Source: an uncultured beta proteobacterium
Lineage (GTDB): Bacteria; Pseudomonadota; Gammaproteobacteria; Burkholderiales; Burkholderiaceae_C
Length of the DNA: 43,017 nt
Direction of reading: 5' to 3'
Assembly: GCA_903914175.1 (NCBI GenBank)
Contig: CAIWNX010000303.1
Location: 1-43,017, forward strand
The notes under the pieces were generated by a model that did no database searches, was not told where the DNA came from, and saw only the letters and a program-made list of their open reading frames with translations. A program made the position numbers and the translations under genes. This document shows, piece after piece, positions 19,063-30,880 of this stretch (positions are counted from its first letter, which is position 1; each line of letters begins with the position of its first letter).

Positions 19063-20496
19063 ATGACGACGGACGAGGCCAAAGGTCGACTCTACGACAC
19101 AACCCTTTTTGTCGGCGTATTTCGTCGCCGCGCCGCTATCAAGGCACTTGCACAGAGACCTGACGCGTCCGGCGTGGTTGCGCTGGCGCAGGCGCTGCGT
19201 GAGGGACACCCTGAGCGCGGGCGAATTCGAAGCGTCCTGCGCAAGCTTTTGCCGCTGCGCGATAACAATAAGATCGCCGCCCTGTGGGCCCAATGGGCGC
19301 AGGCCCCCGACCCCGAACTCGCAAAGATCGTGGCTGATCTTGGCTGCCCATCCGGACGCACGCAGGACGCGCGGTTCGTGCGAGCGGTTCTTGCGGCCGC
19401 GACTGCGTCTGCTGCGCCTGAAATCCTGCAGTCAGTGGCGGTGTTCGCCCGTTCCCTGCCTGTTAATGACGAAGCGTCGAACGATGGTATCTACGCAGCG
19501 TGGATCCGCAGTCAGTCGACCGAGTTGGAGAAACTCATCGATGAACAGTCCCGTCAGGCCAGCAGCCCTGCGTTGGAAGCCCTGCACGCGCTGGTCACCG
19601 GCAGCTTGGAGCGTTACTTCGAGCTCAATGACTCGGACGGCATGCTGCTGGTTCACGCGTTCCACATGGCGCCGGAACCCTTTCGCGAGAGCATCGCCCG
19701 AACGATCGGTGCAAGCCCTGATCGCGGCCTTCTAGAGAACTATCGCCGCGCCCTGTCAAGCGGTACCGCCGATAGTGCGAGCAATGTTGAGAACCTGAAG
19801 TTGGTGGGCGACGAAGACGGGCTGTTCGAAGTAACCCGTTCGCTGTGCCTTCTCGATGTGGTCGATCTGTGTGAACGCTGGTCCACCAGCGCAGGACGAC
19901 CCGGCGGCACGCAGCAGCGCGCCGCTGTCGAGCGGGCACTTGCTGCCTATCGCACGCTGGGCAGTTTCAAGGTGGAGCGTACCGAGCCGCTGCCCGACGG
20001 GCTGGTGGATGTCTTCGAGTGGTGGCGCCAGGAGAACCCTTCCGACGCGCAACTTCTCTCCGATCTCGACTCGCCCGACCCAATGCGCAAAGCCCGGGGT
20101 CTCTACCTCGGACGCGAGAGCGGACTGGTGGATGATGCGCGACTGCATGAGGCAGCCGGCAGTGAGCACTGGCCGCAACGGCTGGTGGCACGGTTGTTGG
20201 AGCCCGAACTTTTCCCGCAAGCGCAGCAGGATCACGTGTTCTGGGTCAGCGCCTGCGCCGGTGATGCTTCCCTTCTGCTTGCACCGATTGACGGTATGCC
20301 GGAAGACTACGCGCGACACATCGGGCTTCTCGCTCAGGCACGCAGTCCGATCGGGTCGCGCACGCGCGCTTTTCTGGAGATCCTCGGCGCATTTCAGGGG
20401 GTATTTGTGGCCAGCGCGATCGTGATTGACGAAGGAAGCGAGACTGTTGATCGAGGCGCTGTGGAGATCGAGGACGCACCGCATGTGAGTTTCTGA
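19063..20496 (+). CDS. Alpha-helical HEAT-like repeat protein, unknown function
   Basis: 477 residues from the ATG at 19063 (MTTDEAKGRLYDTTLF); a GTG at 19057 is the only other in-frame choice, because a stop lies at 19045. No signal peptide or membrane segment. The sequence is Ala/Leu/Arg-rich and reads as stacked helices: RRRAAIKALAQRPDASGVV near the N-terminus and MRKARGLYLGRESGLVDDA in the C-terminal half look like HEAT or armadillo units, but the repeats are too divergent for me to count. It is the first gene of a four-gene same-strand set with an FGE-fold protein, an Hsp70-like ATPase and an AAA+ ATPase. A scaffold or adaptor role is inference only. Confidence 0.8.
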   Translation: MTTDEAKGRLYDTTLFVGVFRRRAAIKALAQRPDASGVVALAQALREGHPERGRIRSVLRKLLPLRDNNKIAALWAQWAQAPDPELAKIVADLGCPSGRTQDARFVRAVLAAATASAAPEILQSVAVFARSLPVNDEASNDGIYAAWIRSQSTELEKLIDEQSRQASSPALEALHALVTGSLERYFELNDSDGMLLVHAFHMAPEPFRESIARTIGASPDRGLLENYRRALSSGTADSASNVENLKLVGDEDGLFEVTRSLCLLDVVDLCERWSTSAGRPGGTQQRAAVERALAAYRTLGSFKVERTEPLPDGLVDVFEWWRQENPSDAQLLSDLDSPDPMRKARGLYLGRESGLVDDARLHEAAGSEHWPQRLVARLLEPELFPQAQQDHVFWVSACAGDASLLLAPIDGMPEDYARHIGLLAQARSPIGSRTRAFLEILGAFQGVFVASAIVIDEGSETVDRGAVEIEDAPHVSF

Positions 20497-20543
20497 CGCA
20501 CGGGCATAATCGATCAACATCATCACTAATACAAACGTGAACA

Positions 20544-20639
20544 ATGGAACTGCAGGTGTCAGCTAGTGTGGCGGACAGGCTTGGCCCGGATGCATCGCGA
20601 CGCGTCTCAACGGCGCAGCGCCTGGAGCACCCGACATGA
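20544..20639 (+). CDS. Possible 31-residue leader ORF before the FGE-fold gene
   Basis: A frame starting MELQVSASVADRLGPDASRR fills most of the 139-base gap between the HEAT-like gene and the FGE-fold gene, and its TGA overlaps the next ATG (ATGA). No clear ribosome-binding site is seen. It may be a coupling leader, a degraded gene end or chance; the length and overlap are the only evidence. Confidence 0.25.
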   Translation: MELQVSASVADRLGPDASRRVSTAQRLEHPT

Positions 20640-21412
20640 TTGATTCGCGCTCTGGCATGCTGCGGCAGATCGAGCCGGGCCGGTTCCGGGTAGAGCACCC
20701 GCTGGTGGTCAACGCGAAGGACGGCTCCTTCCTCGTGCATGTGCCGGCTGGGGCGTTCGAAATGGGCTCGGTCGAGGGCGAAGGCGCGGGAAATGTGAAT
20801 GAAGATCCGCGGCACCGGGTCGAACTGCCGGCTTACTGGATCGGGGTCTACGCGGTGACGAATGCGCAGTACTTGCGATTTATGGCGGCCACCGGCCACC
20901 GTGCCCCGGACAATCAACGCCACCACGAGAAGGAAATGGCGGATCATCCGGTGACCGATGTTTCATGGGATGACAGCCTGGCCTATGCCAACTGGGCGGG
21001 CTGCAAACTGGCAAGCGAGACGCAGTGGGAACGTGCCTGTCGTGGGCCGCTCGGACTCGTGTATCCGTGGGGAAATGCATGGGACGAGACCAAGTGCCGC
21101 AACGACAAGAACAAGGGAAGCGACCAGACCAATGTGGTGTATGGGTATGCGAATGGGGTCAGCGGCTGGGGAACGTACAACCAGAGTGGCAACGTATGGG
21201 AATGGTGCACGGACTGGTACGACGAGAGCCATTACACGGGTTCACCGAACGACGGCCCCAGGGAGCCCAAGCGCGGTACGTCCCGGGTATTTCGCGGTGG
21301 CAGTTGGCGCTACGCTGATCCGGTCTTCTTCCGGGCTGCGTACCGCGGCTGGTACGACCCCAGCAGCCGCGGCGGCGGCTTGGGGCTTCGCCTTGTGAGG
21401 GCGGCGTCATGA
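20636..21412 (+). CDS. FGE-sulfatase (SUMF1) fold protein, probably non-catalytic
   Basis: 258 residues with the formylglycine-generating-enzyme/C-type-lectin-like fold: VPAGAFEMGSVEGEG, HRVELPAYWIGVYAVTNAQY, VSWDDSLAYANWAG, LASETQWERACRGPLG, YPWGNAWDE, NQSGNVWEWCTDWY and VFRGGSWRY in family order. True FGE enzymes end with a copper-binding Cys pair (CxxxYC before the final GFR); here that segment is FFRAAYRGWYDPSSRGGGLGLR with no cysteine, so oxidase activity is unlikely. No signal peptide: cytoplasmic. Such degenerate FGE domains often serve as binding modules. A GGAG site lies about 9 bases before the ATG. The stop overlaps the start of the Hsp70-like gene (ATGA), so the two are probably coupled. 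Confidence 0.85.
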   Translation: MIDSRSGMLRQIEPGRFRVEHPLVVNAKDGSFLVHVPAGAFEMGSVEGEGAGNVNEDPRHRVELPAYWIGVYAVTNAQYLRFMAATGHRAPDNQRHHEKEMADHPVTDVSWDDSLAYANWAGCKLASETQWERACRGPLGLVYPWGNAWDETKCRNDKNKGSDQTNVVYGYANGVSGWGTYNQSGNVWEWCTDWYDESHYTGSPNDGPREPKRGTSRVFRGGSWRYADPVFFRAAYRGWYDPSSRGGGLGLRLVRAAS

Positions 21413-23034
21413 CCATGGCCATAGACTTTGGCACCTGCAACACGGTGCTGGCACGCTGGAATACCGCCACAAGGCGTGTCGACACGCTGCACATCGAGGA
21501 GATCGGCCGGACCTATCACTACCGTGCGCCAGGCACCGCAGATGAGCGCACGTCCGCTGTCATTCCCTCACTCGTGCATTACGGGGAAGGCAATGCGCTG
21601 AGCATCGGCGCGCCTGTGGAGAAAGCCGGACTCGCCAGCCACCGGGGTACGTTTCGGTGGGTGAAGCTCGACATCCTACGCAACAACAATCGCGCCCGCC
21701 GTATCAACGGCGACCTGGTTACGCCGCGCCAGGCGGCCGACGACCTGATCAGCCGCTCGCTGCTCTCGGCCGGGTTGCAGGCGGATGAAGACCTCGTGGT
21801 CACGCTGCCGGTTGAGGCTTTCGATCACTACGTAGACTGGTTGCAGGGAGCGGTCCTGAAGACCTTTCGCGGCAAGGTGCACATGCTCGACGAGGCCACC
21901 GCCTGCATCCTCGGCTACGACACCCACGTTCGCGAGGGCGAGGTCTACGTCGTAATCGACTTCGGCGGCGGTACGCTCGATGTGTCGGTGGTGAAGACGC
22001 ATGACCTGGCAGTCGACACCACACGTCCCTGTGATGTGCTCGGGCGCGCGGGCGAGGAAATTGGCGGCTCACTCGTGGACCAGTGGATGCTCGCCGAGTT
22101 GCAAGAAAGCTTGAAGCTCTCGGACCAGGATATGGCCGACGTGGGAGCGGCATTGCTGCACCGGGTGGAGGAAGCCAAGGTGCGGCTCTCCGGCGGCGAG
22201 ACCCGCGTTGAAGTCGCTCAATTCAATGACATTACTCAGCAACTGATCAGCCACACCTTCGGCGCCGAGGGCCTGCGCCGCATGCTCGATAGTGCGCGGT
22301 CAGATCTGTCCGGTCTGAGTCTTTACCGGCTGCTCGCACGCACCGTCGAGCGTGCGCTAGATGTCGCGCAGAACAAGTACGGCACGCACAAGTCTGACGT
22401 CAAAGCGGTGTTCATGGCCGGCGGCTCCAGTTTGCTGCTGGGGGTGGCCGGCGTGGTGTCGAATTTGTTTCCCGGCTGCACGGTGCACTGCGAGGATCCG
22501 TTTGAGGCGATTGCGCGGGGCGCCTGCCGCTACGCCGGCGAAGATATGAATCTCACCTTGGTGCACGAGTACTGCCTGCGTGCCTGGGATCCGGCGAAGA
22601 AGGACTATGTGCTGGTCCCGGTTGTGCCCAGAGGGACGCGCTATCCCACGCAAGGGGCGATCTCGACCAAGTACGTGAAGGCGGCCTGCGATGGTGCGAC
22701 CTGGCTTGGACTGGTGGTGGTCGAGCGCTCGGCGATGCTGCGACCGCAGGACGTGTGGGAAGTCGCGGGCGGCCGACTGCAGCGGCGCGAGACCATCCGG
22801 CGCGAGGATGTTTCTCTGCGTGAAATCAATCCAGTGGACCGCGAATTTATCCACGCCGATCCGCCCTGTACTGTGGGTGAGCGGCGCTTTATCGCGGGCT
22901 TCGGCGTCGATGAGAATCGGCGGCTGACGCTTTCGCTCAAGGACCTGCACAAGGGCAATCGATCCTACGTTCAGCTTTCGGGCGGAGAGACGTTGCGCTT
23001 GCCGCTGCGGGACCTGCCGATCGTCAAACTGTAG
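21409..23034 (+). CDS. Hsp70-like actin-fold ATPase without the helical lid
   Basis: 541 residues. The nucleotide-binding domain has phosphate-1 AIDFGTCNTVLA (residues 4-15), phosphate-2 IDFGGGTLDVSVV (183-195) and the adenosine motif MAGGSSLLLG (336-345), all as in DnaK. After about residue 370 comes a short beta-rich part (VLVPVVPRGTRYPTQG, compare DnaK PLIPRNT) and then a unique tail ending DLPIVKL. DnaK is about 640 residues with a helical lid and an acidic C-terminus; both are missing. No dnaJ or grpE is nearby. It overlaps the FGE gene by ATGA and is 22 bases before the AAA+ gene. Probably a specialised Hsp70 working with these neighbours rather than a housekeeping chaperone. Confidence 0.88.
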   Translation: MTMAIDFGTCNTVLARWNTATRRVDTLHIEEIGRTYHYRAPGTADERTSAVIPSLVHYGEGNALSIGAPVEKAGLASHRGTFRWVKLDILRNNNRARRINGDLVTPRQAADDLISRSLLSAGLQADEDLVVTLPVEAFDHYVDWLQGAVLKTFRGKVHMLDEATACILGYDTHVREGEVYVVIDFGGGTLDVSVVKTHDLAVDTTRPCDVLGRAGEEIGGSLVDQWMLAELQESLKLSDQDMADVGAALLHRVEEAKVRLSGGETRVEVAQFNDITQQLISHTFGAEGLRRMLDSARSDLSGLSLYRLLARTVERALDVAQNKYGTHKSDVKAVFMAGGSSLLLGVAGVVSNLFPGCTVHCEDPFEAIARGACRYAGEDMNLTLVHEYCLRAWDPAKKDYVLVPVVPRGTRYPTQGAISTKYVKAACDGATWLGLVVVERSAMLRPQDVWEVAGGRLQRRETIRREDVSLREINPVDREFIHADPPCTVGERRFIAGFGVDENRRLTLSLKDLHKGNRSYVQLSGGETLRLPLRDLPIVKL

Positions 23035-23056
23035 ACACTCAGAACAGGGAGAACGC

Positions 23057-24631
23057 ATGGCATTCAAAGACGAGCTGAAGCTTCATTTCGACGCGCGCAT
23101 CGCGGTCGTCAATGTCGTCACGAGCGAAGAATCACGCGTGCTGCAGGAACTCGCCGAACTGGCGAATGGGCCCGGCTGGTCGCCGAGCGAAGGGCTGTAT
23201 ACCTGGGATGTGGCAGACCAGTTCCAGTGCCTCAGACCCGCCAAGGATCCCTTCGATACCGCGCGCGAGGCGCTGCCCGACGCGATCCTGCGCATGATCG
23301 ACGACTTTGCCGGAAGTGCAACTTTTGTGCTCAAGGATTTTCACCAGGTGTGGCAAGCACGGCCAGAGGTGCTGCGCGCCATTCGCAACCTGGCCGCACG
23401 TTTGCCGGAAAGTGCCCCACGCAAGAACATCGTGATCACCACGCCTGAGCACTGTCTGCCGGTGGAGCTGAAACACGACGTACCGGTGCTGGAACTCGCC
23501 AAACCTGATGCGCTGGAGATGGACGCATTGATCGAGCGCACAGTTGGTGATGCGGGTGTGCTGCGCGATGTCAAGCCTGCGCTGCGCGCCAAGCTGGTCG
23601 AGGCCGCCCTCGGACTCACCAGCACCCAGGCACGCTGGGTGTTTCAGAAGGCGGTGGTATCCAGCGGCGCCAGTCAGCTCGACGAGCGCTGCATCGACCT
23701 CATCATGACGGAAAAGCGCGCCATCATCCGCGAAAGCGGTGCCCTCGAACTCTATCCACGCGTTGAGAGCGCTGAACGCGTCGGCGGCCTGGATGCGCTC
23801 AAGCTATGGCTCGAACAGCGTCAGCTCGCTTTCGCGCAAGAGGCGCGCGAGTACGGCCTGGACGCGCCGCGCGGCGTGGCACTGATCGGCATCCCGGGCA
23901 CCGGCAAGAGTTTGTGCGCCAAGGTTGCCGCTGGCATGTGGAAGCTGCCGCTCTTGCGTCTTGACATGGGTGCGGTTTTCGGCGGACTGGTTGGTGCCTC
24001 CGAGAAGAATATCCGCGAGGCGATGCAAATCGCCGAGGTGATCGCACCCTGCGTGCTGTGGGTGGACGAAATCGAGAAGGCCTTCGCAGGGTCCAGCGGC
24101 GACAGCGGTACGTCAAGCCGGGTGCTGGCGACCTTTCTCACATGGATGCAGGAAAAGCGGGCGCCTGTGTTCGTGTTCGCCACGGCAAACTCGATTGAGC
24201 GGCTTCCGCCGGAACTGTTGCGCAAAGGGCGATTCAACGAAGTCTTCTTCCTCGACCTGCCGACTGAACAGGAACGTGAGCAGATTTTGCAGGTGCACCT
24301 GGAGCGCAAGGGCATCACGATGAGCCGGCTGCGCTTCGACCTGCCAAAGATAGCGCGTGCCACCGAAGGCTTCGTCGGGGCCGAACTGGAGGCGGTGGTC
24401 AATGATGCGATGTTCCCCGCGTTCATGGACGGCAAGCGCGAGATCGAGACGGCCGACCTGCTGCTCGCCGCGGGCGACATGGTGCCGCTCGCCAAGTCCC
24501 ATCGCGATCGGATTGCACAGCTTCGCGAACTGGTGTTGAGCGGTCAGGCACGCAACGCCTCTCGCACCGCAGTGATCGAAGAGGTGAAGGTGGAACAAGT
24601 GCGCGGCGAGCGCCTGCTCGATAACGGGTAA
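23057..24631 (+). CDS. Ycf46-like AAA+ ATPase
   Basis: 524 residues. The N-terminal 220 residues (DARIAVVNVVTSEESRVLQEL, then YTWDVADQF) resemble the inactive domain of the Ycf46 family. The classical AAA module follows: Walker A GIPGTGKS (278-285), Walker B VLWVDEIE (333-340), sensor 1 VFATANS, arginine-finger region LLRKGRFNEVFF and the GFVGAELEAVV sensor-2 helix. The pore-loop region is MGAVFGGLVGASEKN. Family members are soluble; Ycf46 has been linked to photosynthesis control in cyanobacteria, but the general role is unclear. Ribosome-binding site CAGGGAGAA precedes the ATG. It is last in the four-gene set and ends 29 bases from the convergent dihaem cytochrome gene. Confidence 0.9.
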   Translation: MAFKDELKLHFDARIAVVNVVTSEESRVLQELAELANGPGWSPSEGLYTWDVADQFQCLRPAKDPFDTAREALPDAILRMIDDFAGSATFVLKDFHQVWQARPEVLRAIRNLAARLPESAPRKNIVITTPEHCLPVELKHDVPVLELAKPDALEMDALIERTVGDAGVLRDVKPALRAKLVEAALGLTSTQARWVFQKAVVSSGASQLDERCIDLIMTEKRAIIRESGALELYPRVESAERVGGLDALKLWLEQRQLAFAQEAREYGLDAPRGVALIGIPGTGKSLCAKVAAGMWKLPLLRLDMGAVFGGLVGASEKNIREAMQIAEVIAPCVLWVDEIEKAFAGSSGDSGTSSRVLATFLTWMQEKRAPVFVFATANSIERLPPELLRKGRFNEVFFLDLPTEQEREQILQVHLERKGITMSRLRFDLPKIARATEGFVGAELEAVVNDAMFPAFMDGKREIETADLLLAAGDMVPLAKSHRDRIAQLRELVLSGQARNASRTAVIEEVKVEQVRGERLLDNG

Positions 24632-24660: not shown

Positions 24661-25326
24661 CTAGCGTCGTTTCGTGGCGCTGTCGGCATTCACCATATAG
24701 GCGATGGCGGCTCGAATTTCAGCGTCGGTGAGGTTGGTCGCATCGCCACGCGAAGGCATCGCACCGTGTCCCTTGATCGCGGAACGGACCAATAACTCGA
24801 ATCCTTGTTTGACCCGTGGGAGCCACGCAGTCCGGTCACCGATTCTGGGAGCGCCCGCCGTACCGTCCTGGTGGCACCTGGCGCAGTAAGTCTGCACGAC
24901 CTCCGCGCCGCCGCGTTCCAAGGCAGACTCGAACTTGCTGACTGGCTCGATCCAGTCACCGCCTGATTGGTTGACCATGTAGGCAATAGCGCGGCTGATT
25001 TCGGTATCGGTGAGATCAGGATTGCCGCCGTGCGGAGGCATTCGGCGAACGCCTTTGAGCGCAGCTTCAGCGAGGCTCGTGAGGCTTTGCGAAGTGAGTT
25101 TCGCCCACGCCTTGCTGTCCCCAATCTTTGGGGCGCCGTCGACGCCGGTTGTGTGACAGGTGGCACACACCGCCGCCACGATTTCCTTGCCAGCGCGCTC
25201 GCGCCCTTGGGCGCCCGCTGCTTGCACTACCGCTGGCAAAAAGAGGAAACAAAACGCCACCATTATCAAAAGTAGCGCTGTCGTGGCGACAGTCAAACGC
25301 CGGTCAACGTTCACTTGAGTATTCAC
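24661..25326 (-). CDS. Dihaem cytochrome c (c5-like tandem domains)
   Basis: 221 residues from the GTG at 25326 (VNTQVNVDRRLTVATTALLL), chosen because AGGA lies 9 bases upstream and a signal peptide/anchor follows. Two similar domains each carry one CXXCH: CATCHTTGVDGAPKIGD and CARCHQDGTAGAPRIGD, each with a later methionine (RRMPPHGG, GAMPSRGD) and an AIAYMVN segment, like cytochrome c5. Periplasmic electron carrier. It is paralogous to the dihaem protein at 37641. It lies just downstream of the two-component genes on the same strand and may be co-transcribed or controlled by them. Confidence 0.9.
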   Translation of the reverse strand: MNTQVNVDRRLTVATTALLLIMVAFCFLFLPAVVQAAGAQGRERAGKEIVAAVCATCHTTGVDGAPKIGDSKAWAKLTSQSLTSLAEAALKGVRRMPPHGGNPDLTDTEISRAIAYMVNQSGGDWIEPVSKFESALERGGAEVVQTYCARCHQDGTAGAPRIGDRTAWLPRVKQGFELLVRSAIKGHGAMPSRGDATNLTDAEIRAAIAYMVNADSATKRR

Positions 25327-25352
25327 GACACAGCTTCCTGCGAGATAGGAGA

Positions 25353-25994
25353 CTATTTGCGCACGTTCTGCCGGGTGGCGAGCAAGGCAGCTTCGACACG
25401 GCTTCGCACGCACAGCTTGCCCAAGATGTTGGTCATGTGGTTTTTGACCGTTTTTTCCGCTAGAAAAACACGCTCTCCGATCTGGCGATTGGTAAGACCT
25501 TCGGCCACCAGACTCAAGATCTTGCGCTCGCGCTCCGACAACTCGCTCAACGGGTCATGCGCGCGTTTGCCTGTCAGTTCGCTCATCAAGCTGGCGGCAA
25601 GCGAGCGCGAAACGTAGACGTCCCCGGCGGCCACCATGCGCACGATGTTGGCCAGATCGTGTGACCCAACGCCCTTCACCACGTAGCCCCGTGCGCCGTT
25701 CTTGAACGCGGCGAGCAAGCGGTCCTCGTCATCGAAAGCGGTCAGCATCACGACCCTTGTTGCAGGGCAGGCTTGCGACAATTTCTCCACCGTTACCAGC
25801 CCGCCCCAGCCGGGCATGCCGATGTCGAGCAGCACGACATCCGGGGCGTGCTCCATGGCCAGGCGCAGGGCTTCCTCGCCGCTCTCGGCCTGCCCGACCA
25901 CGACGATGTCAGGCTCGGCGGCAAGCGAGTGGCTAACACCCTCGCGAAACAGCGGATGATCGTCGGCGATAACGATGCGGATCGGTTCGGTCAT
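25353..25994 (-). CDS. NarL/FixJ-family response regulator
   Basis: 213 residues. An N-terminal receiver domain (IRIVIADDHPLFREGV, phosphoacceptor aspartate in VVLLDIGMPGWGG, lysine in YVVKGVGSHD) is followed by a LuxR-type helix-turn-helix (LSERERKILSLVAEGLTNRQ ... KTVKNHMTNILGKL). Start at 25994 (MTEPIRIV), with GAGGAG upstream and an ATGA overlap with the kinase stop. Transcription regulator paired with the adjacent kinase. Its likely targets are nearby cytochrome genes; this is inferred from position. Confidence 0.95.
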   Translation of the reverse strand: MTEPIRIVIADDHPLFREGVSHSLAAEPDIVVVGQAESGEEALRLAMEHAPDVVLLDIGMPGWGGLVTVEKLSQACPATRVVMLTAFDDEDRLLAAFKNGARGYVVKGVGSHDLANIVRMVAAGDVYVSRSLAASLMSELTGKRAHDPLSELSERERKILSLVAEGLTNRQIGERVFLAEKTVKNHMTNILGKLCVRSRVEAALLATRQNVRK

Positions 25995-27394
25995 GTCTCC
26001 TCGCCGCTGGTCAAGGGTATATCGGCTCGCACCACCGCTCCTTGACCTACAGCGCTCCATATGTAGAAGGTTCCTCCCAGCAGTTCGACGCGCTCGCGCA
26101 TGCCTTCGAGGCCCAGGTGTCCCTCGGTTTGCGCGGTTTGCGGATCGAAGCCTCGTCCGTCGTCACGCACTGAAACCTGCAACCTGTTGTTCGAGGCGCT
26201 CAGCACAATGTGTTGCTTTACAGCGCCGCCATGCCGGTATCCATTTGCCAACGATTCCTGCAGAAGACGAAACAAGGTGATCTTGACCGGCAGCGGAGCC
26301 TCATCCGGCAGGTCGTTGAGGGTCAGTTCGACGTCAACGCCAGAGGAGCGCTTGTAATCGCGTAGCACGCGTCGCGCGACGTCGGTCAGGGACAGCTCCT
26401 CGGTATTGGGCAGGTGCAGCCCCTTGGAAAGAGACCGTACGTCTTCCTGCGCTGAATTCAGCGCTTTTTCAAGCTTCTCGAATTCCTCGGCCACCGGGGA
26501 TTTTTCGCCGGCCGCCGAATTGCAGGAACTGCACATCTTGGACAATGCTTCCATGCGCATGGCCGCAAGCGCAATTCCCTGGACCGGACCATCGTGCAGG
26601 TCGATTGCAATGCGGTGCAGCCGGTGCTCATTGCGCGCCGTCGTACCGCCTGCGGCCCGGGTCATCCGCTCAAGCGCCTGTCCCTTCTCCGCCAACCTGT
26701 TCGTGAGCTGGGAAACCTTCTCCTCCAGTTGCTGCTTCTGAATGACGACGGTGCTGCTTGCGCGCCTGATCAGGACGGCCAGCAGCAGATAAAGGGTTGT
26801 CGCTACCGCGATCACCAGCATCCAGCTTTGCAGCCGGACCGCACCGACGGCTTGGTCCAGCACATCGGTCGTCTGATGGATCTGTGCAACCGTCGGGATT
26901 GATCCGGTTTTCGCTTGATGTACCGGTGCGTAAATTTCAATGAGCTCCGACCCGTGCCCGGCCTGGCGCATCGGATCTTCATCTTTGAGCGTCAATATCC
27001 GCGATGGCGTCTCGCCCCGAAACGCGGCAGCAAGCGCGGGCCCGGTCTCGGATCGCTGACCAATCTGGGTGAGATCCGTGCTGTACAGGACGCGCCCGTC
27101 GCGTGACCACAATTTGAACACGACGATACGCTCTGCAAGCCGCGTCCCGTGCAGCAGCTTGTCCAGCGCAATCATGTCGGCATCGCTCAGCAAACCGTCA
27201 TCGGTGAGTGCCAGCGCCTGGTCAGACAGGACGCTGTCTACATAGAGGGCGTACAACGCGCTTTCATGATCGATCAATTTCTTCTCGGCTGCCCTGCTCA
27301 GCCAGATGCCCGTCACAAGCATCCCGACCAGCAGGGCAGCAGAACTGCCGGCCAGCAGAGAGCGGGTCAGGTTCATTCGAATCGAAGATCGCAT
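25991..27394 (-). CDS. Membrane sensor histidine kinase (NarX/HisKA_3 type)
   Basis: 467 residues: membrane segment at about 13-32, a periplasmic sensor domain to about 188, a second membrane segment at 190-209, a coiled-coil (VIQKQQLEEKVSQLTNRLAE), the HisKA_3 box RIAIDLHDGPVQGIAL with phospho-histidine His267, and a HATPase domain (DDGRGFDPQ, HLGLEGMRERVELLGG). A CxxC pair (CSSC, 288-291) sits in the loop of the dimerisation domain right after the phospho-histidine helix, which is unusual and might be redox-active. Ligand unknown. The start could also be the Met at residue 7; no good ribosome-binding site distinguishes them. Confidence 0.93.
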   Translation of the reverse strand: MRSSIRMNLTRSLLAGSSAALLVGMLVTGIWLSRAAEKKLIDHESALYALYVDSVLSDQALALTDDGLLSDADMIALDKLLHGTRLAERIVVFKLWSRDGRVLYSTDLTQIGQRSETGPALAAAFRGETPSRILTLKDEDPMRQAGHGSELIEIYAPVHQAKTGSIPTVAQIHQTTDVLDQAVGAVRLQSWMLVIAVATTLYLLLAVLIRRASSTVVIQKQQLEEKVSQLTNRLAEKGQALERMTRAAGGTTARNEHRLHRIAIDLHDGPVQGIALAAMRMEALSKMCSSCNSAAGEKSPVAEEFEKLEKALNSAQEDVRSLSKGLHLPNTEELSLTDVARRVLRDYKRSSGVDVELTLNDLPDEAPLPVKITLFRLLQESLANGYRHGGAVKQHIVLSASNNRLQVSVRDDGRGFDPQTAQTEGHLGLEGMRERVELLGGTFYIWSAVGQGAVVRADIPLTSGEET

Positions 27395-27722
27395 GATGGT
27401 TGCCGGATCGTGGTAGAGGCAAATTGGGTCGGTTCAGTATAGGGCATCAAGCCTGCGAAAGAGGGTCGTTTTGCCCTGTTCAGACACTGGGACTTTGTGC
27501 GGGCGCCGATCAGCCAATACCTCTGACGCAGGGTGGAAATTGGCACTGCTGAGGATATTGGTCCCATGAAAAAAAGGACCAAGGTCACGGCTAATTCGTG
27601 ACCATCGCCTGTTGGTTGGGGACCGGGCTTTCTAAACAATAGCGTCCAAGGCATTGCACTGGAGACTGCGGACCCGCTGCAAGGCAAGTTCAACATAAGC
27701 CCTTCCGCAAAGGAGACTAGCG
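27395..27722. promoter_or_regulatory. Divergent intergenic region with two adjacent inverted repeats
   Basis: 328 bases between the minus-strand two-component genes and the plus-strand CBS/ferredoxin/NrfD set. Two inverted repeats abut: TTGGTCC/GGACCAA (27558-27564 and 27576-27582) and GGTCACG/CGTGACC (27583-27589 and 27597-27603). A NarL-like heptamer TACCTCT lies at 27518-27524. These are plausible operators for the neighbouring regulator. No gene seen. Confidence 0.4.
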
Positions 27723-28337
27723 ATGAATAAGATTCTTGAAAAATCAGCCACCGTTATCGGATTGGCACTTATTTCCCCCTTGGCCCTTGCCGCCAATTTG
27801 GAAGAGGTTCAGAGCTTCGTTGGGAAAGCGGTGCCGTCCGCATTTGTCCTGGCGATGATCGTCATGGCCGCCTTTGTGTTCTTTCGGCAATTGCCCAACA
27901 AGAGCGCAGACACTTTGCAAAGCGTTCTCAATAATGAAACCAATGCAACGCAGACCGTGCAGGCCGATTCGCTGGTCATCGAATGCGTGCGCAAGATGGC
28001 CGGCCAGAAGATCGGTGCCCTGATGGTGATGGACGGCGCAAAGTTGGTCGGCATCTTCACCGAGCGCGATGCTCTGAGCCGCGTGCTGGCGGCCGGCCGC
28101 GATCCGCGTGACACCCGAGTCGTCGAGGTCATGACGACAGATCCATGCTGCGCTTCGCCACAAATGACCGTCGGTGCTGCGATGGACCTGGTCACCAAGA
28201 ATCAGTTCCGGCATCTGCCGGTTGTGGAAAACGGCAAGGTGCAAGCACTGCTGTCGAGCCGGGACCTCTCGCATTGGTTGGGCAAGAACCGGACCGGCGA
28301 CCTTCAGGACATGGTCAAACTTTCCCAACAGGCTTGA
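27723..28337 (+). CDS. Membrane-anchored CBS-domain-pair protein
   Basis: 204 residues. AAAGGAGA precedes the ATG. A signal-like hydrophobic segment (6-23) is followed by a second membrane helix (about 38-54, AFVLAMIVMAAFVFF). The rest is a CBS pair: QTVQADSLVIECVRKMAGQK...GIFTERDALSRVLAAG and VVEVMTTDPCCASPQMTVGA...FRHLPVVENGKVQALLSSRD. CBS pairs bind adenine nucleotides and act as regulatory switches. The order with the ferredoxin, NrfD protein and cytochrome just downstream on the same strand suggests energy-state control or tethering of that complex. A soluble paralogue lies at 33742. Confidence 0.88.
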   Translation: MNKILEKSATVIGLALISPLALAANLEEVQSFVGKAVPSAFVLAMIVMAAFVFFRQLPNKSADTLQSVLNNETNATQTVQADSLVIECVRKMAGQKIGALMVMDGAKLVGIFTERDALSRVLAAGRDPRDTRVVEVMTTDPCCASPQMTVGAAMDLVTKNQFRHLPVVENGKVQALLSSRDLSHWLGKNRTGDLQDMVKLSQQA

Positions 28338-28400
28338 TGACAAGCGCCGCCCGCCGCGGCGCTGCTCCCACAACCTAACCGCCGAGCCCAATCAGGAAAC

Positions 28401-29513
28401 ATGGTGCCAAAAAAAGAAGAATTGCCCCGCGTCGATCCTGACAAGGCGTCGCCATCGCAACTGGAAACTCGGTCGATGCCGGTGGAAAAGTCAGAACGCA
28501 AAGCCAGTGCCTCGCGGCGCGGCTTTCTGACCAAGGCGGCCACCGCCACCACACTGAGCGTGACCTCACTGATGGGCACGGCAGCCTTGTTGACCAATTC
28601 CGACGACGCCGCCGCCAACAGCACCTGGGCAGAGTGGTTTCAGGGTAACTACCGTTTGATGACTGAGGCGGAGAAGCAGCAGGCCCGTACGCGCCTGGAA
28701 AAGCGCTACTCAGCCGAATTCCACAAAAAGGTGACGGTCGATGGAACGCCTGCTGCCGAGGGAGTGCTGTTCGGCTATGCGCTCAATGTCCAGAAATGCA
28801 TCGGTTGCCGCCGTTGCGTCAAGGCATGTGTGCAGGAAAACAACCAGTCGCGCCGTGATGAGTCCCGCAAAGGAAAGGAAATTGAGTGGATTCAAGTCCT
28901 GAAAATGGAAAAAGGCGAATTCACCCGGGAAAAGATGAACAAAGGTTACCCCAGCGATGCGGGGATCCAGGTGGGCGGCAATGCCTACAGCCCGGCCGGC
29001 GTGGTGCTCGAAGGTGAGTACCACTATCAGCCCGAGAAGGTCCCCGAGAAGGATGCCTTCTACATGCCGATTGCCTGCATGCAATGTGAAAAACCGCCCT
29101 GCGTCAAGGTCTGCCCGGTGCGTACGACCTATCGCGAGCCGGACGGCATTGTGGTGATTGACTACAACTGGTGCATTGGCTGCAAGCAGTGCGTCGACGC
29201 ATGCCCCTACTGGGCACGCAGATTCAACTTCACCACGCCGAATTTGCCCGAGGCAGAAATGAACCCGGTCACGCATTACCTGGGCAACCGTCCGCGTATG
29301 CGCGGCGTGGTCGAGAAATGCACCTGGTGCGTTCAGCGCACCCGCCAGGGGCGCTATCCGGCTTGCGTTGAAGTTTGCCCGGTAGGGGCGCGCAAGTTTG
29401 GCAATCTTCTTGATCCCGAGAGCGAAGTGAGTCAAATTTTGGCCAAAAAGAATGTTCTTCGGCTGAAGGCGGAACTCAACACTTATCCAAAGTTCTTCTA
29501 CTACTTTGACTAA
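28401..29513 (+). CDS. Tat-exported ferredoxin with four [4Fe-4S] clusters (DsrO/PsrB-like)
   Basis: 370 residues. A long N-terminus leads to a twin-arginine signal SASRRGFLTKAATATT (Arg39-Arg40), so it is exported folded to the periplasm. Four cysteine groups are seen: CIGCRRCVKAC, CMQCEKPPCVKVC, CIGCKQCVDAC and CTWC...CVEVCPVGA, for four cubane clusters. Architecture matches the electron-transfer subunits of DMSO/polysulfide-reductase-type and DsrMKJOP complexes (DsrO). It lies directly before an NrfD-type protein and a multihaem cytochrome, as DsrO does with DsrP and DsrJ, but no dsrM/K or molybdoenzyme gene is present. Substrate unknown. Confidence 0.9.
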   Translation: MVPKKEELPRVDPDKASPSQLETRSMPVEKSERKASASRRGFLTKAATATTLSVTSLMGTAALLTNSDDAAANSTWAEWFQGNYRLMTEAEKQQARTRLEKRYSAEFHKKVTVDGTPAAEGVLFGYALNVQKCIGCRRCVKACVQENNQSRRDESRKGKEIEWIQVLKMEKGEFTREKMNKGYPSDAGIQVGGNAYSPAGVVLEGEYHYQPEKVPEKDAFYMPIACMQCEKPPCVKVCPVRTTYREPDGIVVIDYNWCIGCKQCVDACPYWARRFNFTTPNLPEAEMNPVTHYLGNRPRMRGVVEKCTWCVQRTRQGRYPACVEVCPVGARKFGNLLDPESEVSQILAKKNVLRLKAELNTYPKFFYYFD

Positions 29514-29521
29514 GGAATGAA

Positions 29522-30880
29522 GTGATACGTTCGATCCTTCGATTTGTTGTTGACTTCGCTGCCTATGTCATCAAAGGTGGCCCCAAGTTCTACGCCTGGC
29601 TTGCGTTTCTGGGGGTCTTTGTGCTGGCCTTGTTGTACGGCACCTACCTGCAGGCCACTGAAGGTTTGATCGTCACCGGATTGAGCAATCAAGTCACGGA
29701 TGGCTTGTACATTGCCAACTTCGTCTTTATGGTGGGTGTGGCGGCCGGGGCGGTCACGATTGTGTTCCCGGCGTATGTCTATCACCACAAGGGTTTGCAT
29801 GATGTCACCGTCCTGGGTGAAATGCTTGCCGTCTCGGCCGTCATGGCGTGCAATCTTTTTATCCTGTCGCACATGGGGCGCCCGGAGCGGCTCTGGCACA
29901 TGATGCCGCCGCTTGGCATCATCAACATCCCAAGTTCCGCCTTGGCGCTTGACGTCCTCACGCTGTCAACCTATCTCATTCTCAACCTGGTCGGCGGCTT
30001 CTATTTCATGTACACCCGCTACATGGGTACTGAGGTCAACCGCAAGTTCTACATGCCCTTGATCTATATCTCGATTGTTTGGGCCTTGAGCATTCACACC
30101 GTCACTGCGTTTTTCCTGAGCACCATGCCGGCGCGCCCGATGTGGAACACCAGCATGATGCCGATCCGCTTCATCGCCACGGCATTCGCAGCCGGTCCGT
30201 CGCTGATCATTCTGCTGTTTTTGTACATCCGGAAAAATACCCGGCTGTGGATTGAAGATTCCGCCATCAACACGCTTTCAACCATCGTCACCTTTTGCCT
30301 GGGCATCGCGCTGTATTTGACCCTGTCTGAAATAGTGACGGAACTTTATTCTGTAACCGAACACTCGCTGGGCTTGCAATACTTGATGTTCGGACTCGAC
30401 GGCTTGAACAAACTGGTGCCGTGGTTTTGGACCTCTCTGGTATTCAACCTCGTCGCTTTTTTCATGCTGCTGACGCCCAGTGTGCGCAAAGATTACGGAC
30501 TGCTGCCATTCGCCTGTGTGCTGGCCATCATCGGGATCTGGATCGAAAAGGGCATGGGAACTGTGGTTCCGGGTTTTATTCCAACCCCCATCGGTGAAGT
30601 GACCGAATACGTTCCGACATTGATTGAAGTTCTCATCACGATGGGTGATTGGGCCATGGGTATGCTCATCGCCACCGTGCTGTTGAAGGGTTCCATCGGC
30701 GTCCTGCTTGGGGACGTGAAGCGTGCAAGCCAACCATGGCGCGTGATGAGCGACGATGCCCCGCCTTACCAAACCACCTTCGAGCCGGCCCGGATGGAAC
30801 CGTGGGCGCGGTCCAGTGACCCGGACGCGAAAGTGGACGGGGGTATCGGCACAAGGCGCGGCAACCGCCCGAGCGTCTAA
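29522..30880 (+). CDS. NrfD/DsrP-type quinone-interacting membrane protein
   Basis: 452 residues from GTG 29522, with AAGGA upstream, starting 8 bases after the ferredoxin stop. About ten membrane segments (first at roughly residues 21-40, last near 400) with the NrfD-type histidine/acidic features SHMGRPERLWHM and IEKGMGTVVPGF. The tail after residue 410 is hydrophilic. NrfD proteins pass electrons between membrane quinones and a periplasmic ferredoxin and may move protons. The ten-helix form is nearer to DsrP/HmcC/ActC than to eight-helix NrfD/PsrC. Partner of the ferredoxin and cytochrome either side. Confidence 0.9.
   Translation: MIRSILRFVVDFAAYVIKGGPKFYAWLAFLGVFVLALLYGTYLQATEGLIVTGLSNQVTDGLYIANFVFMVGVAAGAVTIVFPAYVYHHKGLHDVTVLGEMLAVSAVMACNLFILSHMGRPERLWHMMPPLGIINIPSSALALDVLTLSTYLILNLVGGFYFMYTRYMGTEVNRKFYMPLIYISIVWALSIHTVTAFFLSTMPARPMWNTSMMPIRFIATAFAAGPSLIILLFLYIRKNTRLWIEDSAINTLSTIVTFCLGIALYLTLSEIVTELYSVTEHSLGLQYLMFGLDGLNKLVPWFWTSLVFNLVAFFMLLTPSVRKDYGLLPFACVLAIIGIWIEKGMGTVVPGFIPTPIGEVTEYVPTLIEVLITMGDWAMGMLIATVLLKGSIGVLLGDVKRASQPWRVMSDDAPPYQTTFEPARMEPWARSSDPDAKVDGGIGTRRGNRPSV

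What the first reader, a model, noticed from the sequence alone, without database searches (positions are those of the whole stretch)
19063..24631. Unassigned four-gene set: HEAT-like protein, degenerate FGE fold, lidless Hsp70, Ycf46-like AAA+
Seen: four same-strand genes, the FGE and Hsp70 genes overlapping by ATGA and the AAA+ gene 22 bases later, inserted between cytochrome genes and having no transporter, nuclease or toxin nearby. Two different ATP machines (actin-fold and AAA+) are joined with a binding-type fold and a helical scaffold. Known: FGE-fold, HEAT and AAA modules recur in NTP-dependent conflict or sensing systems; Ycf46-like AAA proteins lack a settled role outside cyanobacteria. 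Inference: this may be a self-contained protein-remodelling or surveillance device in which the FGE-fold protein or HEAT protein selects a client for Hsp70 and AAA+.
Basis: partly seen in the sequence, partly recalled or inferred. Interest (0 to 1): 0.85.

Follow-up and report, generated by a model that had tools for sequence, protein, structure and literature searches.

The report
Chaperone gene set with lectin-fold sensor
Four neighbouring bacterial genes form a conserved unit that seems to pair a lectin-like recognition protein with two ATP-driven chaperone machines, and in one distant relative the same unit carries a built-in mutation machine that diversifies the recognition protein, which hints at a sensing or defence role that remains untested.

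Summary
The four genes are real, in the stated order and coordinates, and under purifying selection. They are a conserved module: the same order recurs in four other betaproteobacterial lineages (82-89% DNA identity), and in one (L009) only these genes align, both flanks differing. In 398 phylum genomes the HEAT-like and Hsp70-like genes occur in the same two, one being the window's own.

Within a 125-base core, template/target mismatches in two FGE genes fall only on template adenines (13 and 21, against 0 of 95 other bases). FGE is thus a recognition module. The window's copy lacks both catalytic cysteines, has a fixed binding face, and its genome shows no reverse transcriptase.

My reading: a chaperone-driven recognition device of the DGR-linked conflict-system kind, with Hsp70/Ycf46 replacing STAND or MoxR-vWA ATPases. 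No effector was found, the DGR link is proven at one locus, and function is untested. Dedicated quality control is the main rival.

The parts
19063..20496 (+). HEAT/ARM-like alpha-solenoid protein, 477 aa (adaptor or scaffold, inferred)
   Evidence: fused to an FGE domain in one relative (P0068) and to WD40 in a Pseudanabaena relative
20636..21412 (+). FGE-fold (C-type-lectin-fold) protein, 258 aa, without the two cysteines of the enzyme motif; proposed recognition module
   Evidence: relatives in L039 are DGR targets
21273..21397 (+). segment homologous to the variable repeat of the DGR-diversified FGE genes of L039; no sign of diversification in the window lineage
   Evidence: no RVT_1 and no template repeat found in the own genome
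21409..23034 (+). Hsp70-like ATPase with a beta-type C-terminal domain and no helical lid, 541 aa
   Evidence: two phosphate-binding motifs kept in 117 of the 120 listed relatives
23057..24631 (+). Ycf46-type classical AAA+ ATPase, 524 aa; Walker A, Walker B and arginine-finger motifs present

Best explanation
The four genes encode a chaperone-driven recognition device. The FGE-fold protein binds one particular ligand, probably a protein, through its lectin-type face. The HEAT-like solenoid couples that protein to the ATPases. The lidless Hsp70 acts as an ATP-dependent switch or holdase, and the Ycf46-type AAA+ ring remodels the captured complex. The set is a reduced, fixed-specificity form of a larger system (with GrpE, a 4Fe-4S/radical-SAM protein, DUF1257 and DUF2997) whose FGE subunit is diversified by a DGR in a Ca. 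Thiodictyon-like genome. The likely purpose is detection of an invader or other non-self protein. SHOWN HERE: gene order, co-occurrence, purifying selection, folds (predicted), loss of the FGE cysteine pair, and the DGR signature on two FGE genes of the relative. INFERRED: every physical interaction, the order of events, the ligand, the immune purpose, and whether the window's lineage ever had a DGR.
For: Conserved order in L005-L009, at 82-89% DNA identity to the window, left flanks differing, and in L009 only 19064-24630 aligned. HEAT and Hsp70 in the same 2 of 398 genomes, own genome included. Protein clusters share longest-contig lengths: HEAT/Hsp70 14 (chance about 1.1), Hsp70/AAA+ 17 (about 0.9), HEAT/AAA+ 6 (about 0.75); compared were all 101 HEAT clusters, 120 of 259 Hsp70 and 120 of 7,775 AAA+ clusters; the chance figures are a rough density estimate. 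HEAT-FGE fusion P0068. Operon with DGR in L039: RT, HRDC, template repeat; mismatches at A 13/30 and 21/30 against 0/95 at other bases in a 125-base core. Several FGE or HEAT-WD40 paralogues beside one chaperone set, as expected of interchangeable recognition parts. In L023 a bpMoxR gene of the MoxR-vWA-beta-propeller type lies about 12 kb away with HEAT-WD40 genes between. DGR-diversified lectin-fold proteins are proposed antigen sensors in STAND and MoxR systems (PMC10907252, passages and sections). A precedent for chaperone-dependent phage sensing is DnaJ with bNACHT25 (PMC12169576, abstract).
Against: No effector domain (nuclease, protease, TIR) in the four proteins; PADLOC gives only IetA and TRIP13 models on the AAA+. 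One locus alone proves the DGR link; outside the 125-base core a 135-base alignment adds two non-A mismatches for each target. In the Magnetococcales genome the DGR template found is not cognate to the FGE genes beside Hsp70, and L011 keeps only an HRDC homologue. The set is not always complete: no HEAT match in G1156 or G1158, no AAA+ in G545 or G1156 at E 1e-45. Related AAA+ proteins occur without the partners. In the betaproteobacteria the lectin face shows no excess change. Single-sequence tblastn found HEAT on none of 72,556 plasmids (the profile does match L023), and no viral contig. The right flank (24661 onward) is shared by L005-L008, so the set is not freely mobile there.
Confidence: 0.5

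Rival explanations
1. A dedicated protein-quality-control or assembly machine for a host complex: FGE-fold and HEAT proteins recognise one endogenous client, and Hsp70 with AAA+ fold, assemble or recycle it (an Hsp70/ClpB-like division of labour).
For: Two chaperone-type ATPases with intact motifs; lectin face without excess change and strong purifying selection; no effector; cytochrome genes on both sides.
Against: Rare and patchy: Hsp70 of this family (E up to 1e-50) in 1 of 399 family, 1 of 399 order and 2 of 398 phylum genomes, the own genome included each time. Left flank differs in each of the four other lineages and both flanks in L009. A DGR on the FGE genes (L039) is hard to reconcile with one fixed client.
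Confidence: 0.27
2. A spin-off of a Ycf46/Ycf35 (DUF1257)/DUF2997/4Fe-4S module whose main job is redox- or light-linked regulation or radical-SAM-type protein modification; FGE and HEAT parts only aim it.
For: Related AAA+ genes neighbour DUF1257, DUF2997 or a 4Fe-4S/radical-SAM gene in L012, L023 and L039, and in all five further plasmid loci read (L042-L046: cyanobacteria, Treponema, Rhodococcus; five of 693 records). A DUF2997-ycf35-fed7 gene cluster is reported in Synechocystis (PMC4284462, one passage).
Against: The own genome and those of L005-L009 have no DUF1257, and the 4Fe-4S/radical-SAM gene of L010 has no match in the window or L005-L009, yet the four genes are kept. L042-L046 show no FGE, HEAT or Hsp70 match.
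Confidence: 0.15
3. Unrelated genes that happen to be neighbours.
For: Gap of 139 bases between HEAT and FGE; in the fragmented Magnetococcales genome HEAT lies on another short contig than Hsp70; some genomes lack one component.
Against: Conserved order in five lineages including the window, fusion P0068, co-occurrence in the same 2 of 398 genomes.
Confidence: 0.03

Closest known systems
DGR-linked STAND and MoxR-vWA (VMAP) ternary conflict systems (PMC10907252; PMC7159879)
   Same: FGE/C-type-lectin recognition domain diversified by a DGR (here in a relative); an NTP-driven chaperone-type core; HEAT and beta-propeller scaffolds; purple sulfur bacteria and cyanobacteria among the hosts
   Different: No MoxR, vWA, VMAP or STAND NTPase in the four proteins or in the ten L039 proteins scanned; the core is lidless Hsp70 (with GrpE in relatives) and a classical-clade Ycf46-type AAA+; no known effector; the window copy has no DGR
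GAP1-N2 / DO-GTPase systems with HSP70 and GrpE (PMC7159879, passages)
   Same: HSP70 plus GrpE in a predicted conflict context; an HSP70 without the peptide-binding domain is reported there
   Different: Those are built on GTPases with GAP1, tubulin or FNIII-DnaJ partners; none was seen in the window proteins scanned
Hsp70-ClpB bichaperone disaggregase
   Same: Hsp70 and AAA+ partner working in sequence (analogy only)
   Different: AAA+ is of the Ycf46 type, not Hsp100; no J-domain protein among the nine window proteins scanned; FGE and HEAT partners
IetAS anti-phage pair
   Same: AAA+ domain similarity (IetA, E 3.2e-23)
   Different: No subtilase among the neighbours scanned; the match covers the AAA domain only
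AAA+/DUF1257 (Ycf35)/DUF2997 loci of cyanobacteria and their plasmids
   Same: AAA+ 35-48% identical to the cyanobacterial plasmid copies listed; in L039 and L012 the same partners
   Different: No DUF1257 in the window's genome; adds FGE, HEAT and Hsp70

Membership tests
MoxR-vWA ternary conflict system | MoxR-clade AAA+ with a vWA-domain protein | tested here: not met
   Pfam scan of the four window proteins and five neighbours shows no MoxR or vWA family; the AAA+ is PF00004 with AAA_lid_3
STAND-NTPase conflict system | STAND/NACHT NTPase | tested here: not met
   Only a sub-threshold nSTAND3 match on the AAA+, 14.7 bits against cut-off 27.2
DGR target gene (window) | Reverse transcriptase and adenine-specific TR/VR pair in the genome | tested here: not met
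   0 RVT_1 matches in the own genome; the L039 RT has no match there either; apart from itself the VR-like segment finds nothing above 30.1 bits, E 0.48. The draft genome is 96.88% complete, so an unassembled DGR is not excluded
DGR target gene (relative L039) | Reverse transcriptase and adenine-specific TR/VR pair | tested here: met
   RVT_1 49.2 bits, HRDC 69.9 bits; mismatches 13/30 and 21/30 at A, 0/95 at other bases in the 125-base core; in a 135-base alignment 88% of 16 and 92% of 24 mismatches are at A
Formylglycine-generating enzyme | Catalytic cysteine pair (recalled) | tested here: not met
   The four aligned solved chains have two cysteines in the C-terminal motif, the window protein has none there
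Hsp70/DnaK | Hsp70 nucleotide-binding domain with ATPase motifs | tested here: met
Hsp70/DnaK | Helical lid (SBD-alpha) | tested here: not met
   The model ends in a beta domain (residues 387-540) with one five-residue helix and no lid
Ycf46 family | Full-length orthology to chloroplast/cyanobacterial Ycf46 | tested here: inconclusive
   Source labels only (P0249, P0333; other labels on P0268, P0275) and linkage to DUF1257 in relatives; no named Ycf46 sequence compared
HEAT-repeat proteins | HEAT repeat signature or clear HEAT fold | tested here: inconclusive
Known anti-phage system (PADLOC 2.0.0) | Match of the system's own models | tested here: not met
   No match for HEAT, FGE or Hsp70 at E up to 1; only IetA and TRIP13 models for the AAA+

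The most novel reading that the evidence does not exclude
A further class of DGR-linked recognition systems, not described in the papers I could search: Hsp70-GrpE and a Ycf46-type AAA+ (with a 4Fe-4S/radical-SAM protein, DUF1257 and DUF2997) take the place of STAND or MoxR-vWA ATPases. A hypervariable FGE protein, docked on a HEAT solenoid, hands non-self proteins to a chaperone relay. In the betaproteobacterial lineage of the window the reverse transcriptase has been lost and one specificity has been fixed: an adaptive sensor turned innate.
Probability: 0.4. Interest if true: 0.85.

Novelty: new variant of a known kind. Interest (0 to 1): 0.68.

Why it matters
If true, it links molecular chaperones directly to targeted hypermutation: a DGR would feed diversified binding proteins into an Hsp70/AAA+ machine, tying protein surveillance to a form of bacterial adaptive recognition. 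It would also give the poorly understood Ycf46, Ycf35/DUF1257 and DUF2997 proteins a testable context outside photosynthesis. The window set, with four genes and a fixed binding face, is a small and tractable entry point.

Tried and rejected
DGR in the window genome: sought by RVT_1, by the VR-like DNA and by the L039 RT; nothing. DGR of G1153 as a source for L007's FGE: its RT (40% identical) lies in L066 with another target and, by my reading of the ORFs only, integrase-, lysozyme- and methylase-like genes; not this system. DGR of the Magnetococcales genome: RT, HRDC and an asparagine-rich repeat in L067, but mismatches to the L011 FGE genes fall on other bases too (14/22 at A, 27/92 elsewhere), so it is not their template. 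Window segment against the L039 template: 24/30 mismatches at A, 24/95 elsewhere (p 1.5e-7). I do not count this as proof of past diversification, because lectin-face positions vary across FGE proteins anyway (entropy 1.85 against 0.64 bits over 7 proteins, leaving out FGE2, FGE3, L005, L007 and L008).

Viral link: scans with the Hsp70 and HEAT alignments and the RT gave 7 distant Hsp70 relatives (23-26%), no HEAT, and one distant RT (26%). Plasmids: HEAT tblastn none; Hsp70 in five records, at 31.7% (L023) and four at 23.4%. Prevalence searches count only E up to 1e-50, so distant variants are not counted and fragmented genomes may be missed.

Literature: in the listings of searches, and in the passages opened, I saw no description of this gene set. 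Supplements (including the gene tables of PMC10907252) could not be opened, so the Thiodictyon locus may be listed there. The VIA search of the Hsp70 model tested mainly residues 1-379.
Full report
OBSERVATION. The window (contig C303 of a 4.05 Mb draft genome in 322 contigs, 96.88% complete, 5.26% contamination) holds four plus-strand genes: HEAT-like 19063-20496, FGE-fold 20636-21412, Hsp70-like 21409-23034, AAA+ 23057-24631. The ATGA overlap and the 22-base gap are as described. Cytochrome c genes flank the set. Pfam, NCBIfam and PADLOC recognise the FGE, Hsp70 or AAA domains but not the HEAT-like protein, and no complete defence system.

EACH PROTEIN. HEAT-like: the AlphaFold model (alignment of 23 sequences) is an alpha-solenoid (pLDDT 83) with only weak matches to HEAT/ARM chains. 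Relatives of about 611 residues carry an inserted stretch that, by eye, resembles the neighbouring part. FGE: clear FGE fold; the two cysteines present in the four aligned solved chains are missing; TvpA, a DGR-type variable protein by recall, is among the solved relatives (2y3c, E 4.6e-12). Hsp70-like: nucleotide-binding domain plus a beta domain and no lid; best matches include DnaK lid-deletion mutants. Two phosphate-binding motifs are kept in 117 of the 120 listed relatives of 259 found. AAA+: Walker A, Walker B and arginine-finger motifs are present. The pore-loop motif is GGLVG in the window; the eight commonest motifs among the 120 listed relatives (87 of 120) are aliphatic too, where the four aligned Cdc48-type modules show MWFG, KYYG, KWVG and KMAG.

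IS IT ONE UNIT? Of the eight loci from the single genome-contig scan with Hsp70, five (L005-L009) hold all four genes in order. L005 and L006 are 99.98% identical, so these are four lineages, 82-89% identical in DNA to the window. The alignable stretch starts at window 19004 (L005, L006), 19011 (L007), 18843 (L008) or 19064 (L009); in L009 it ends with the AAA+ gene, while in L005-L008 the right flank is shared. The other three loci are partial: L010 (4.3 kb) has GrpE, Hsp70 and a 4Fe-4S/radical-SAM gene; L011 (5.9 kb) has FGE, FGE, an HRDC homologue, a GrpE-like gene (GrpE match just under the Pfam cut-off), Hsp70 and an FGE start; L012 has an Hsp70 fragment, the 4Fe-4S/radical-SAM gene, a broken AAA+, DUF1257 and DUF2997. 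dN/dS is 0.06-0.22 for each gene against L005, L007, L008 and L009. Among 398 phylum genomes, Hsp70 (E up to 1e-50) and HEAT (E up to 1e-5) are found in the same two, the own genome and G545. The family and order samples (399 each) show Hsp70 only in the own genome; a family sample around L010 shows 3 of 116, L010's own genome included. Not every genome shows every part: HEAT is found in 8 of 10 genomes or records searched (G545 and G1157 give the same places, so count once; absent from G1156 and G1158), and AAA+ at E 1e-45 in 10 of 12 (absent from G545 and G1156). Shared longest-contig lengths between protein clusters exceed a rough chance estimate. One relative (P0068) fuses HEAT and FGE in one ORF.

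THE FULLER SYSTEM. In a 125-base core the FGE2 and FGE3 variable repeats differ from the template only at template adenines (13 and 21 of 30; 0 of 95 other bases; Fisher 8e-10 and 4e-17). A 135-base alignment shows 16 and 24 mismatches, 88% and 92% at adenines, so two in each fall elsewhere, outside the core. FGE5 differs at 18/30 A and 14/95 other bases, FGE4 at 21/31 and 34/95, so these two are not clean targets now. The order FGE-HRDC-(Avd)-RT-FGE recurs in an annotated DGR on a Prosthecochloris plasmid (L097), which supports the identification. A Pseudanabaena plasmid (L023) has GrpE, Hsp70 (32% identical), DUF1257, an ATPase, DUF2997, AAA+ (48%) and a protein whose N-terminus matches the HEAT profile (E 4.5e-20) ahead of WD40 repeats, with further HEAT-WD40 relatives and, about 12 kb off, a bpMoxR gene next to an annotated VWA gene. 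G545 (Magnetococcales; by position the same genome as L011) carries WD40, HEAT and an FGE start on another contig (L041). G1209 has Hsp70-FGE beside a divergent caspase-FGE gene, a 4Fe-4S/radical-SAM-AAA+ pair and DUF1257 on other contigs.

WHAT THE WINDOW LACKS. Single GrpE, 4Fe-4S/radical-SAM, DUF1257 and DUF2997 queries had no tblastn match (E up to 0.01) in the window or L005-L009. DUF1257 is absent from the own genome and those of L005-L009, and also from G545 and G1156; it is present in 4 of 12 genomes or records searched. No RVT_1 was found in the own genome. The window's lectin face shows no excess of amino-acid change among the betaproteobacteria.

HOW IT MOST LIKELY WORKS. I infer capture of a ligand by FGE, docking through the solenoid, and ATP-dependent handling by Hsp70 and AAA+. 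What happens to the ligand, or what signal follows, is unknown. The DGR in L039 suggests that in one relative selection favours changing what FGE binds, which is easier to explain by non-self recognition than by one house client. Against this, no effector is visible, the link rests on a single proven locus, and related AAA+ proteins work with other partners elsewhere.

COMPARISON. STAND- and MoxR-based DGR systems (PMC10907252: outline, passages, section 6 and section 11 part 1; PMC7159879: passages; PMC8195603: passages) share the lectin-fold sensor, scaffolds and an NTP-driven core, but their defining ATPases are absent here. 'Hsp70' does not occur in the main text of PMC10907252. HSP70-GrpE does occur in GAP1-N2 GTPase systems (PMC7159879, passages), where the passages name no FGE, HEAT and Ycf46 set. 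The searches listed under Tried and rejected showed no description of this set; supplements were not readable. Other papers seen only as single passages or abstract: PMC4284462, PMC10954446, PMC13131479, PMC12169576.

VERDICT. A real, conserved and, as far as I could search, undescribed module; a new variant of the DGR-linked, NTP-driven recognition systems; function unproven.

Noticed in passing
L068, L069, L070 (G1264): Three further DGR-like loci with adenine-biased template/target pairs and RT matches in the same genome as L039.
   Followed up: partly
L066 1-14042 (G1153): DGR with an adenine-biased pair among phage-looking ORFs, in the genome that also holds L007; unrelated to the four-gene set.
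   Followed up: partly
L044 11327-15551: Treponema succinifaciens plasmid: a 4Fe-4S gene and a Ycf46-type AAA+ sit inside a contractile-injection-type gene cluster (VgrG/baseplate V annotations).
   Followed up: no
L045 4252-7989: Rhodococcus plasmid: AAA+, hypothetical, DUF2997, helix-hairpin-helix and 4Fe-4S genes in a row, an actinobacterial version without Hsp70 or FGE match.
   Followed up: no
L042 6168-25535: Geminocystis plasmid: AAA+ with DUF1257, DUF2997, RloB and DUF4007 annotations in a region that also holds DndB and toxin genes.
   Followed up: no
L040 489-2378 and 15778-17991 (minus): Two caspase-FGE fusion genes, one divergent from Hsp70-FGE; possible effector-type partners.
   Followed up: partly
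L012 7986-12465: Decayed copy: Hsp70 seen only as its last 129 residues, AAA+ broken, a stray AAA+ fragment downstream.
   Followed up: no
P0022, P0034 and other ~611-aa HEAT relatives: Extra internal stretch of about 134 residues that by eye resembles the neighbouring segment: the solenoid may grow by duplication.
   Followed up: no
L039 3255-5588 (minus): Protein kinase domain fused to a Ycf46-type AAA+.
   Followed up: no
window 24661-30880: Diheme cytochrome, response regulator, histidine kinase, CBS, Fe-S and multi-pass membrane protein genes; the stretch next to the AAA+ gene is shared by L005-L008 as far as their contigs reach.
   Followed up: partly
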